Source: an uncultured Alphaproteobacteria bacterium (GTDB lineage Bacteria; Pseudomonadota; Alphaproteobacteria; Geminicoccales; Geminicoccaceae). Taken from it: 64,000 nucleotides of DNA. The stretch is from NCBI GenBank assembly GCA_937926445.1, contig CALBAK010000002.1, positions 62,001 to 126,000 of the forward strand. Direction: 5' to 3'. Position 1 is the stretch's first letter. Every line of letters starts with the position of its first letter. Shown here one piece after another: positions 24,502 through 29,941 of this stretch. The translations under genes were made by a program, and so were the position numbers. The notes under the pieces were generated by a model. That model was not told the DNA's origin. It did not search any database and saw only the letters and a program-made list of their open reading frames with translations.

Positions 24502-25113
24502 ATGGCCACTACCGGGCCGGCTCGCTGGTTCAACCCGCACGAGCGGATCGCCGTGTTCATCGACGGCGCCAATCTCTACCAGGCCGCACGCGCCCTCGCC
24601 TTCGATATCGATTATCGCCGGCTCCTCGACGTCTTCGCGAGCCGCGGCCGGTTGATCCGCGCCTATTATTACACGGCGCTGCTCGACGAGCAGGAATACT
24701 CGCCGATCCGGCCGCTGGTCGACTGGCTCGACTACAACGGCTACACGATGGTCACCAAACCGCTCAAGGAATTCAGCCAGGCGACCGGCCGGCGCAAGTA
24801 CAAGGGCAACATGGACGTCGACATCGCCGTCGACGTGATGGAGCTGGCGCCGCACGTCGACCACGTAGTGCTGGTGACCGGCGACGGCGACTTCAAGCGC
24901 CTCGTCGAGGCGGTCCAGCGGCGCGGGGTCCGCGTCTCCACGATCAGCACGATCCGCACCACACCGCCCTTGATCGCCGACGAGCTCCGCCGGCAGTCCG
25001 ACCAGTTCATCGATCTGGCCGAACTCCACGCCTACATCGCCCGCCAGCGGGCGACCGAGCCGGCGGCCGAGCGCGACGAACCGATCGAAGAAGAAGAGGA
25101 CGATCTCGGCTGA
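24502..25113 (+). CDS. NYN/LabA-type (DUF88) nuclease-like protein
   Basis: 203-residue protein of the NYN domain family, PIN-like metal-dependent RNases. The first acidic motif is FIDGANLY (Asp21), the second cluster is [13 protein letters not shown], and the third is [11 protein letters not shown], the standard arrangement of the active-site Asp residues. A Gly-rich linker and an acidic tail follow. GGAGG lies 10 bases before the ATG. It is divergent from rpoZ; in many Alphaproteobacteria this gene type lies between smpB and rpoZ, but here a 6.7-kb block separates it from smpB. RNA target unknown. Confidence 0.88.
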
Positions 25114-27979
25114 GCGTTTGGGCCGGCGCGTCCGCCCCGCCGTCGGGCCGCAGCCTTCCGGGATCCGTCGACGCCCGGTAGCTGCCGCCGCGGATGGACC
25201 GCTCCCGGCGTTCTGTTGTCCGTGCTGCGCGGGCGGGCCCGGCCCCGAGTGGCCTCGCGGGGTATCGACCTCCTCGGCCGACGGCAGGCCCGTTTCGGGC
25301 CCGCGCGCGAGCGTCCGGCCGCGGCCCGGCTAGCGATGCCTCAAGGCGCCCCACTCGCTCCGCATCCGGATGCGAGTACGCGGCGGGTGCGAGTACGCGC
25401 AAAGTGCGTGGGTGGGGGCCGCGAGCTCTCCCGGCGACGCCCCCGTCGAGCTCGAGCGGAAGTGCGCTCGACGACCGCGGCCGTCACGGGAGCCTCGCGA
25501 GCGACTGCTCTCTCCGCGGCTCGGCGCGAGCCGTGTGGACCCGGGTACGGATCGGCCTCCTCGAACCGCTCCCGAAGCCCAGGCGCGCGTGTGCGGGGGT
25601 GCGGAGTTGGGGGCCGCGAGCTTTCTCGGCGCCGCTCGCTCGGCGCAGGGGCGGCATCGCGCGGCCCGGCGTTCGCCGCGAAGCGGATGGCGCCGGGTGG
25701 GGTACGTTTCGCCCGCCGGGTGCGACCGCGCGGTGACGCGGCGTGGTCGGCGCACGGCGAAGTCGGGCCGCTCCCGGAAAGTTCCGCTGCGCCCCCGAGA
25801 GGGCGTCTCGGGCCCGGCACCGGGCCCTCGCTGCCCCTCACGGCTTCGGTCGTATCCCTCCGCGCACGCGGTAGGTGCGCCCGGCGCTTCGCCGTCGCGT
25901 GCCGATCGCGAGCGGCCCCGGGCCGGACAACCGATCCCGGCCGAAGATCCGCCGTTCGTCCGCCGAGCGAGCCGGCACTCCGGCGCCTTCGCTCGCCTCC
26001 GCGGGATCGGCAGGCGAGTTCCGCCGGCTCGGCTCCGAGCCGCCATCCGGACCGGCATTGCCGCGCCGAAACGCGAGGTCCGACCGGCGAGACACGGGGT
26101 GGGGACGAGCCGCGGTCGTCCGCGCGCAGCGGTCGCCGGTCGCACCTGTGCCGTTTCGCGGGCCCGCCCCCCGGTCGCCGCTCCGACCGCAGCGGCTGCG
26201 GCCGGGCCGGGGCGTCGCCACGAGCGAGCACCCGCCACCGCTTCGACCAGGGTCCGTTCGCGGCCGACCCCGGGGTGGAAAGCGAAAGTCACTGCGACCG
26301 TCCACGGTCCGAAAGGGGCGCTGCCGGGGCGAGGCCCCCGTCTCGCCCTGCGATGCGACGGACCGGCCTCCGGGCGTCGGACGAGGCGCGGACGTCGACG
26401 GTCCGGTACTCCCGCGGGCCCTGCCGGCGAGCGCCTTGGCGGGAGCCTAGGGCCTCGCTCCACCGTCCGCCCGAAGAGGATCCGGTCCCCGGGGGATCCG
26501 GCGGCGCCGGCACTCCCTCCCCGTGCCACACCGGGGTCGCGTCCCCTGGTCCGCGAGTCTGCTGCCGCATCCGTCACGGCGCGGGCGGCCGTGTCCACGT
26601 CTTTTCCCGGCGGCGCGAGAGCGGCCGCTGGAGCGGCGACGCCCGCCTCGCGGGCGCTCGCGCGCGGCGTCGCCGCCTCGAACGTCCGATGCTCGCCGGA
26701 GCAGCCCTCGCCTGCGGACCGTTGCGGACCGGGATTCTCCGGGCGAGTCGGGCGGTGGCACCCCTCGCTCCCGATGCGCGGCCCGATGTGCCGTTCGAGC
26801 CCATCATGCGCTCGGCCCACGGCGGATTTCCCCCGCCTTCCGGCCCGAGGTGCCGGAGGCCTCGGCGCGAGCAGGTCGGCCGATCCGGGGGGGGTCCGGC
26901 GCACCCCTCGACGGACCGCCGGGCGCCCCCTCGGCGCTTCCCGGCGCCGCTCCGCGCCGGCCGGCCGCGAACGAATGCCGGCGACGGGCAACCGTTGGCC
27001 GCAGCTCCGTTCGTACCATCCGCAGCGGGCGCCACTTCGGTGGCATCCCTCGGCCCGGCGACCCACTCGGCAGCGGACGGCCGCAAAGCTCGATCGGAAC
27101 GGCCGAACCATCGCGCGGGGCCGCGATCCTTTCCGCCGCCTGTCGGCCCTCCCCGTTTCGGAGGCCCAGCGGACGAGACGTCGCTCTGGCCGACCATGCC
27201 CGACTAGTCTCGGTCGACACGCGAGCCCGATCGGAAGCCACCCGCGCCTTCTCCGGCCGTGGCCGTCCAGGGTCGCGATTCGAGTGGCGCGAGTGCGACC
27301 GATCCGTACCGACGACACGGGCACATCCTCGCGGCCCCGATCGGGCTGTCGGCCGGACCGAGCGTCCGCGCCGTAGCCGCGCCGGCACGTCGGTCGGCTC
27401 GGCGCGACCGCGTGGATTTGCCGCCGAGGAAGGGCGTCCCACGAACGAGCGGCCGCCGAGCCCGTCGCCCGTCCCGCCCGGGAGCCGCTTCGCAGCCGAC
27501 GATCTCCTTCTCTCGCGCCTCGGTCGGATGTGCGAGGCGCGCGAGTTGGCGCCCCGGGTCGGTGGCCGATCCGATCCCGGGCCCACGCTCGCCCCGCGCG
27601 GACGAAAGGCACGCGTTCGATGGATCCCGACCGCGGGACGACCGTCCCGTCGGCGCAAGCGTGCACGGGGCCGTGAAGGTGCCGCCCTCCGGTCGGACCA
27701 GGGACCATCGCGAACGGGCCCGTTCGGCGCGGCGGGCCCGTTTCCTCGCCCCACCGCACCGCCGGTACGACCGACCGCCGACCGGCGTGTTGGAGCGCTC
27801 GGTCGTGCCGACGCGACGAAACCGTCGGCCGCTACCGCCCGGTGGTTTCCGGCACGATTCGAATCGCCGACGTCGGTCCGCCCGCGCCGCCGCCGACCGA
27901 GGCGGCGGCTCGAGGGGCTGGAAGGGCCGGTGGGCCGCGCGGTCGGATCCGATCGAAAGCGCTCGACCGCGCGGTGCCC
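25114..27979. other. 2.9-kb region without a convincing gene
   Basis: The whole stretch is extremely GC-rich and stop-codon-poor, so frames stay open for 600-800 codons on both strands. Their translations are dominated by Arg, Gly, Pro, Ala and Ser with few hydrophobic residues, without domain motifs, periodic structure or Shine-Dalgarno sites, unlike the neighbours. It is treated as non-coding. Visible structure is limited: a 12-bp palindrome GCATCCGGATGC (25362-25373), a directly repeated TGCGAGTACGCG (25371 and 25388), a degenerate pair of about 35 bp with a shared GGGGCCGCGAGCT core (about 25403 and 25597), and an 8-G run (about 26887-26894). No tRNA, CRISPR or insertion sequence was seen. 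Confidence 0.6.
25362..25632. repeat. Short degenerate direct repeats and a palindrome in the gene-free region
   Basis: TGCGAGTACGCG occurs at 25371-25382 and 25388-25399, the first copy overlapping the palindrome GCATCCGGATGC. A longer, imperfect unit with core GGGGCCGCGAGCT recurs about 195 bases apart (near 25413 and 25609), followed in both copies by T/C-rich sequence and CGGCG. These may be relics of a duplication or an RNA or protein-binding element. Confidence 0.4.
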
Positions 27980-28957
27980 TCAGATCGGGGCGGTCGCCGC
28001 GCGGGCGGTCCACGTGGTTCGGGGCGAAGCCTCCTCGGCCTGCCCGGCGAAGAAGGCGACGAGATCGGTCCAGAGCCGTTCTCGGATCGCGGGTCGTTCG
28101 AAGAACAGATCGTGGCGGGCTCCGGGATGGTCGACCAGCCGGGCCCGCGGCAGTCGCCGGGCGAACCGCTCGATCGCCCGGTTGCAGACGATCCGCTCCT
28201 CTCCGGCCCGCACCAGCAGCAGAGGGACCTCGATCGATTCGGCGAAGCCCGGCGCGCGGGTCGCCTCGATCGAGCGCAGGGCCGCGGCGAGCCACCCCCA
28301 CGTCACCCCACCGACCCGCCGCTCCGGATGCCGGCGCAGAAGTTCCCAGGCAGCGGCGAATCCTTCCGGGCAGGAGGTAGCGGGATTGCCTTCGAAGGAG
28401 CAGGACGGCCGAGGGTCGCGCTGGCCCGGCGCGTAGCGACGTGCGGCACCGAGCCGGACCGCGGTCTCGGCGAGGAAGCGCGCCATCGGTCGCGGCGGCG
28501 GGACGAGCCGGATGTCGAACATGGGCGTGACCAGCGCCGCCCGGGCGACCGGACGGGACCCGCGGCCGAGCCAGCGCAGCGCGACGTGCCCCCCCATCGA
28601 GTGCCCGAGCAGCATCCAAGGCTGCGGCAGGCCGAGCGCGGCCACCCGAGCCACCAACAGGTCGACGTCCTCGAGATAGGCTTCGAAATCGTCGACATGG
28701 CCACGCGCTGTGCCGGGGACGAGACGCGGCGAGCCGCCCTGACCGCGCCAATCGAGACCGATCACCACGAACCTCGCCGCCACGAGCCGCTCGACCGTGG
28801 CGGCGTATTTCTCGAGGAACTCGCCGCGCCCCTGGAGCAGGAACACGGTACCGTGCACGGCCCGCCCTCGGGGCCGCGCGAGGCCGGCCCGCAACGGTCC
28901 GACCGGCGAAGGAACGATCAGGGTCTCGGCGGCGGGTGCGGGCCAGGGTGACGGCAT
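27980..28957 (-). CDS. Alpha/beta hydrolase, lysophospholipase-like
   Basis: 325-residue hydrolase of the PldB/monoglyceride lipase type. The oxyanion region is FLLQGRGEFLEKY, GLDWRGQGGS is the strand-3 loop, and the nucleophile elbow is GHSMGG (Ser120). The last block HDLFFERPAIRERLW supplies the catalytic His. The expected acid sits in AGEERIV, where Glu occupies the place of the usual Asp; either can serve. Start is the ATG at 28957 at the front of the conserved part; longer upstream readings are Arg-rich. The gene is isolated, with long gene-free stretches on both sides. Confidence 0.85.
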   Translation of the reverse strand: MPSPWPAPAAETLIVPSPVGPLRAGLARPRGRAVHGTVFLLQGRGEFLEKYAATVERLVAARFVVIGLDWRGQGGSPRLVPGTARGHVDDFEAYLEDVDLLVARVAALGLPQPWMLLGHSMGGHVALRWLGRGSRPVARAALVTPMFDIRLVPPPRPMARFLAETAVRLGAARRYAPGQRDPRPSCSFEGNPATSCPEGFAAAWELLRRHPERRVGGVTWGWLAAALRSIEATRAPGFAESIEVPLLLVRAGEERIVCNRAIERFARRLPRARLVDHPGARHDLFFERPAIRERLWTDLVAFFAGQAEEASPRTTWTARAATAPI

Positions 28958-29941
28958 CGATCCTCGAGCGGCGGGAAAGCGGTGCCGTCTCTCTAGCCGA
29001 GCCCTCGCCCGGGCGCGAGACGGCGCGGCCTCGCCGGATCCGCGACACCAGATCGCTTTGCGGGCCTCGCCACGCCCCGAGGCACGGAATGCCGCTGGTC
29101 GGGTCGGCCGCTGCCGGGTCGTTCGAGACCTCACTTTCGTTCGCGAAGAGCGCTCGGTCGTTTGGCAGCATCGCTGCCACGACAGGCCCGCGGGCTTCCG
29201 TTCGATACTGGATCGGGAACACCGCGTTCCGTCGCGGGGTCTTCTGCAGAGCCTTCACAGCGGGCGACCGTGCCGCACGGTCGGCCCCGCCACCGACCCG
29301 TTTGCGGAGGTTGCGCCTGCCGATAGTGCAACGGGCTCCCGCGGCGCCGCCCTCGCCCCGCGACCTTCGCGGTCGACCCGCCCCACGCACCGTCGACCGA
29401 TCCTGGTCGGGTTCGCCCGAGGCTTAGGCACAGGAGGCCCCGATGCGACGGCCGAAGGCTGTTCCGTTTCGGCGGCCCGCGCGCAGGTTCGCGCGGGAAC
29501 ACCGGGGTGGATGGACTTCGCCCTCGGGTCGTTCGGCGTCCCGCGCGTTGCGGGGCGCTCGAGTCTCGACGGATGCGGCTCGCGCTCGCGGCCCTCCACC
29601 CGCGCGGCGGACAACGGCCCTCTCGCCGAGCGTCACCGGCTTTCCCGCGACGATGCCCGGTGACGTCCCGCTGAAACGAGCGGTGCGGCGCGTGTCGAAG
29701 TCGCGGCGGGTCCGGCCCCCGACCTAAGCACACCCGGTGCCGGCCGACGCCGGCGGCGACGCCGGCCCACACCGCCGCCTTTCCGAGGCCGCCCAATCCC
29801 CCGATCCTCCGTTCGACCTCGAACCGTTTCCCGTCGATGCGTTCCGCTGTGCGTCGACCCGGACGGCTCCGCAGCTCGCTCGTTCGCGTTACGCCGGCTG
29901 TCACTCGACCGCCGGCCGCCGAGGAACGTCGTGCCGTTCCG
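28958..29941. other. 1-kb stretch between the hydrolase and motB with no convincing gene
   Basis: Both flanking genes are on the minus strand. Open frames here have the same Arg/Pro-rich, motif-free look as the larger gene-free region. The only element with a proper start context is a 94-codon reading at 29443-29727, listed separately. Nothing else is seen. Confidence 0.55.
29443..29727 (+). CDS. Possible small arginine-rich protein
   Basis: 94-codon frame starting with ATG and preceded by CAGGAGG at 6-base spacing, close to an ideal Shine-Dalgarno sequence. The product is strongly basic and low in hydrophobic residues (many Arg, Pro, Ala), with no recognisable family or membrane segment. 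The composition is the same as that of random open frames in this GC-rich DNA, so the good ribosome site is the only positive evidence. Listed as a candidate; it may be spurious. Confidence 0.25.
   Translation: MRRPKAVPFRRPARRFAREHRGGWTSPSGRSASRALRGARVSTDAARARGPPPARRTTALSPSVTGFPATMPGDVPLKRAVRRVSKSRRVRPPT

What the first reader, a model, noticed from the sequence alone, without database searches (positions are those of the whole stretch)
25114..27979. 2.9-kb gene-free stretch in otherwise dense chromosome
No frame shows the composition, start signals or family motifs of a gene, although frames stay open over hundreds of codons because stops are rare. A non-coding region this long is exceptional in such a compact genome. 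It could be decayed coding DNA, a recombination junction or an unknown RNA-rich locus.
Basis: partly seen in the sequence, partly recalled or inferred. Interest (0 to 1): 0.6.

Follow-up and report, generated by a model that had tools for sequence, protein, structure and literature searches.

The report
GC-rich spacer at lost repair-gene slot
This 2.9-kb stretch really carries no gene; it is one of many long, GC-rich, unconserved spacers in this bacterium's genome, and it fills the slot where related bacteria keep a DNA-repair gene (a uracil-DNA glycosylase) that this lineage has lost.

Summary
Window 25114-27979 lies exactly between two convergent genes (NYN-domain protein, alpha/beta hydrolase). 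G+C is flat at all three positions (0.76-0.77); there is no codon periodicity, no protein or RNA family match, and folding is no better than shuffled sequence. Frames are more open than chance (18 stop trinucleotides against 43 expected), but the cause is a genome-wide avoidance of T-A at distances 1 and 2, also seen at synonymous sites of genes. 'Exceptional' does not hold: 1.18 Mb sampled (32% of the genome) contains 17 non-coding stretches over 1 kb, one of them longer, and 8 of the 17 lie between convergent genes (p=0.001). Synteny explains the place: most relatives carry a family-5-type uracil-DNA glycosylase between the same two genes. It is absent genome-wide in four of six sampled species of this genus (about two losses), and no remnant survives here. 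The spacer is not conserved even within the genus, where synonymous sites are nearly saturated. A faint tandem duplication (195-bp offset, p=0.003), and clearer 181-292-bp ones in a sister species' spacers, suggest growth partly by local duplication and decay. Best reading: unconstrained, lineage-specific spacer DNA at a gene-loss site. Modest interest.

The parts
25114..27979 (.). GC-rich (76.6%) non-coding spacer, 2866 bp
   Evidence: flat position GC and no period 3; HMM non-coding call; no Pfam/NCBIfam/PHROGs/PADLOC match for the long ORFs; no Rfam match at gathering scores; fold z mean 0.03
24502..25113 (+). left flank: NYN-domain (PF01936) protein gene, conserved in synteny
   Evidence: Pfam E 1.8e-40; orthologues in 42 of 60 relatives
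27980..29134 (-). right flank: alpha/beta hydrolase (PF12146, lysophospholipase-like); true start probably near 29083 or downstream, inferred from where orthologues align
   Evidence: Pfam E 8.8e-40; orthologues in synteny
25404..25467 (+). copy 1 of a decayed tandem duplication (195-bp offset)
   Evidence: 72% over 64 nt; p=0.003 against Markov shuffles
25599..25662 (+). copy 2 of the decayed tandem duplication
29135..29941 (.). second long GC-rich non-coding spacer, between the hydrolase and motB; the same interval is 188-315 bp in relatives
   Evidence: weak or absent period 3; HMM segment 28862-29968, which includes part of the hydrolase N-terminus

Best explanation
The stretch is unconstrained, lineage-specific spacer DNA. 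Ancestors had a family-5-type uracil-DNA glycosylase gene between the NYN gene and the hydrolase. The common ancestor of this species and its two nearest sampled relatives lost it, and the slot is now filled by non-coding DNA whose length (1.07 kb, at least 1.5 kb, 2.87 kb) and sequence differ between the species. The DNA is GC-rich and poor in stop codons because the genome's substitution bias (towards G/C, against T-A at distances 1 and 2) has free play there. It persists between two convergent genes because no promoter is disturbed. Shown: non-coding state, the synteny, the loss, the lack of detectable conservation, the genome-wide context bias, the convergent enrichment. Inferred: that growth was partly by local tandem duplication followed by decay, why it persists, and that the spacer has no function.
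For: No codon signal and no protein or RNA family. Fold energy equals shuffles, mean z 0.03 over 92 windows. The slot carries a glycosylase in G001, G002, G006, G011, G015, G017, G018, G020 and in further family members including Geminicoccus harenae. The best solved match is 2d3y, a uracil-DNA glycosylase, E 2.3e-41. No match anywhere in G000, G003, G004, G005, which keep only the other PF03167 gene. The tree places G000, G004, G005 together and G003 with G001, hence about two losses. Spacers do not align between species and there are no convincing homologues in 31 family genomes, while four-fold sites are 64% identical to G005 against 46% by chance. The same class of spacer occurs across the genome, 8 of 17 over 1 kb between convergent genes against 13.7% of pairs, p=0.001. 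The T-A context bias also shows at four-fold sites in genes. Tandem duplication traces.
Against: No glycosylase remnant is detectable, so the loss could have been a clean deletion followed by unrelated insertion. The duplication explains only some 130 of 2866 bp, and only 5 of 17 long spacers show such traces at p of 0.015 or less. Mutation in bacteria is thought to be AT-biased (PMC2936535), so neutral DNA at 77% GC needs a counter-force that was not measured here. The lack of conservation was judged at near-saturated distances, so weak or very recent constraint cannot be excluded.
Confidence: 0.75

Rival explanations
1. The spacer is a decayed mobile element or other imported DNA that landed in the slot, perhaps removing the glycosylase gene, and has since lost every recognisable feature.
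For: Length grew by kilobases with no recognisable source inside the genome. In G005 another expanded slot is 5.2 kb and includes extra sequence.
Against: No match in phage or plasmid collections, no PHROG in the ORFs, no convincing homologue in the family. Composition and T-A context match other spacers of this genome.
Confidence: 0.15
2. The stretch is a functional but fast-evolving non-coding locus, for example a long RNA or a structural chromosomal spacer.
For: Long spacers recur at the same syntenic positions in G000 and G005 (2257 and 927 bp here; 151 and 137 bp in G003).
Against: No excess RNA structure, no conserved segment between species, no sigma-70-like promoter and only two overlapping terminator-like sites. 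Recurrence can be a single ancestral expansion.
Confidence: 0.07
3. One of the long open frames (663, 668 or 809 codons) is a real gene with unusual composition.
For: Frames are open beyond dinucleotide expectation.
Against: Stops are depleted in all six frames at once, as in other spacers. There is no period 3, no family match and no relatives.
Confidence: 0.03

Closest known systems
Lineage-specific intergenic DNA left at a gene-loss site (pseudogene-remnant type)
   Same: A gene conserved in relatives is missing at this exact slot, and the space is filled with unconserved DNA
   Different: No pseudogene sequence remains; the space is more than four times the size of the lost gene, and it is GC-rich rather than AT-drifting
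GC-rich intergenic DNA under GC-biased gene conversion or selection for GC (Lassalle et al. 2015, PMC4450053)
   Same: Unconstrained DNA with GC above what AT-biased mutation predicts
   Different: Spacer GC (0.766) exceeds the coding mean (0.716); recombination was not measured here
Family-5 uracil-DNA glycosylase (UDGb, Thermus thermophilus 2d3y)
   Same: The protein that relatives encode at this slot matches it at E 2.3e-41
   Different: The window's genome has lost it; the spacer contains no trace

Membership tests
Protein-coding gene | three-base periodicity or codon-position GC pattern | tested here: not met
Protein-coding gene | similarity to any protein family or to relatives | tested here: not met
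Structured RNA | known family match | tested here: not met
   (one sub-threshold chance hit, E 0.53)
Structured RNA | folding more stable than shuffled sequence | tested here: not met
   mean z 0.03, minimum -1.96 over 92 windows
Structured RNA | conserved sequence or covariation in relatives | tested here: inconclusive
   no alignable spacer in the genus, so covariation could not be counted
Pseudogene of the glycosylase | position at the syntenic slot | tested here: met
Pseudogene of the glycosylase | recognisable remnant of the protein in any frame | tested here: not met
Mobile element | element genes, terminal repeats or copies elsewhere | tested here: not met
Local tandem duplication product | diverged internal direct repeats beyond chance | tested here: inconclusive
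   one 64-nt pair, p=0.003; most of the length unexplained

The most novel reading that the evidence does not exclude
In this clade of Geminicoccaceae, intergenic spacers, chiefly between convergent genes, actively grow by kilobases through repeated local duplication and rapid decay, while staying at 74-78% GC: a bacterial counterpart of expanding non-coding DNA that runs against the usual deletion and AT biases.
Probability: 0.25. Interest if true: 0.5.

Novelty: new member of a known kind. Interest (0 to 1): 0.27.

Why it matters
It shows how a gene-loss slot in a bacterial chromosome can end up larger, not smaller, and still GC-rich. That bears on why non-coding DNA persists in bacteria and what sets its base composition. 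It also warns that long six-frame-open ORFs in very GC-rich genomes can come from sequence-context bias alone, which inflates false gene calls.

Tried and rejected
Coding in any frame, from family scans and HMM. RNA families and structure. Repeat family elsewhere in the genome (only 31-53 bp matches) and cross-spacer similarity (nothing beyond simulation except one 95-bp match that lies next to the start of a downstream gene; no Rfam family). Mobile DNA. Selection against stops as a sign of translation: rejected because A..T pairs at distance 2 are also depleted in the other spacers and the same bias shows at four-fold sites of genes. A hidden out-of-phase coding signal: no lag-3 autocorrelation. 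Recombination junction: flanks syntenic.

Full report
What is there. The window is bases 62001-126000 of contig C2 of a 3.71-Mb, 120-contig genome. The nearest named records are two Geminicoccaceae MAGs and a Pseudomonadota MAG (SKYG96, SKYB19, SRBZ.bins.76); that they come from hot springs is my reading of the isolate names, not a tool result. The stretch 25114-27979 lies between the stop codons of two convergent genes: an NYN-domain gene (24502-25113 +) and an alpha/beta hydrolase (27980-29134 -).

It is non-coding. GC is 0.768/0.758/0.772 by position against strongly uneven values in neighbouring genes, and the period-3 signal is at background. A seven-state coding/non-coding HMM trained on this genome calls 2920 bp non-coding here. 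The long ORFs match nothing in Pfam, NCBIfam, PHROGs or PADLOC. No RNA family reaches threshold. Predicted folding is exactly as stable as dinucleotide shuffles (mean z 0.03).

Why the frames are open. Stop trinucleotides on both strands number 18 against 43.0 +/- 5.3 in shuffles. Most other long GC-rich spacers of the genome show the same tendency. The depletion is of T and A at distance 1 and 2 (T.A at distance 2 is 0.21 of expectation here, 0.43 in the other spacers), but A.T pairs are also depleted in the other spacers, and there is no lag-3 signal. At four-fold sites in genes the same contexts are avoided: T is used 2.2% of the time before S-A against 5.4-5.7% before other contexts, and A in TCN 0.8% against 2.0-3.7% in CCN, ACN and GCN. 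So a genome-wide substitution context effect, not translation, is the simplest cause.

It is one of a class. In 606 kb there are 12 non-coding stretches over 1 kb and 4 over 2 kb. A held-out sample of about 570 kb adds 5 and 2, including one of 3016 bp (leaving out a contig that reads N). Of these 17, 8 lie between convergent genes, which make up 13.7% of gene pairs (p=0.001).

What the slot used to hold. Relatives keep the NYN gene and the hydrolase adjacent, 564-1069 bp apart stop to stop. In most of them that gap encodes one conserved protein that matches PF03167 and, best among solved structures, the Thermus uracil-DNA glycosylase 2d3y (E 2.3e-41). That 2d3y is the family-5 (UDGb) enzyme is from my own knowledge. 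The gene is present in G001, G002, G006, G011, G015, G017, G018, G020 and not found anywhere in G000 (this one), G003, G004 and G005. All nine genomes checked keep another UDG-superfamily gene. On a five-protein tree G000 groups with G004 and G005, and G003 with G001, so about two losses. No remnant is detectable in the spacer with a profile made from intact relatives.

How it changed. The emptied slot is 564 bp in G003, 1069 bp in G005, at least 1.5 kb in G004 (contigs break inside it) and 2866 bp here. Three other spacers of this genome, 1107, 2257 and 927 bp by the HMM, correspond to 188, 151 and 137 bp in G003, and to 315, 5216 and 822 bp in G005. Spacer sequences at this slot do not align between species, but four-fold sites are also near saturation, so this only says that no strong constraint is visible. 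The window spacer holds one decayed tandem duplication with a 195-bp offset (p=0.003); the G005 spacer at the same slot has one at 181 bp, and other G005 spacers have 5.3 copies of 189 bp and 2 copies of 292 bp. Five of 17 long spacers here show internal duplications at p of 0.015 or less. Growth by local duplication is therefore plausible but explains only part of the length.

Composition. Spacer GC (0.766) is above the coding mean (0.716) and below four-fold sites (0.92). Given that bacterial mutation is generally AT-biased (PMC2936535, known here from its title and abstract only), this fits GC-biased gene conversion or selection for GC (PMC4450053); neither was tested here.

Verdict. A real but ordinary kind of feature: unconstrained spacer DNA in a gene-loss slot. 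The unusual parts are its size, GC richness and recurrence in this clade.

Noticed in passing
window 29135-29941: A second long non-coding GC-rich spacer between the hydrolase and motB; the same interval is 188-315 bp in relatives.
   Followed up: partly
window 24502-27979 and genomes G003, G004, G005: A family-5-type uracil-DNA glycosylase gene has been lost about twice within one genus while the other UDG-superfamily gene is kept.
   Followed up: yes
L163:998-2542 (G005): Non-coding spacer with 5.3 copies of a degenerate 189-bp tandem unit, about 73% alike.
   Followed up: partly
L170:12539-13421 (G005): Non-coding spacer with two 292-bp tandem copies, 91% matches.
   Followed up: no
L152:9-7752 (G005) and L262 (G000:C45): Stretches that read as runs of N, at least in large part, so not examined.
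   Followed up: no
G001:C88:62481-63467 (L038): The hydrolase orthologue in G001 has an internal TAA in the matched range, possibly only a C-terminal difference.
   Followed up: no
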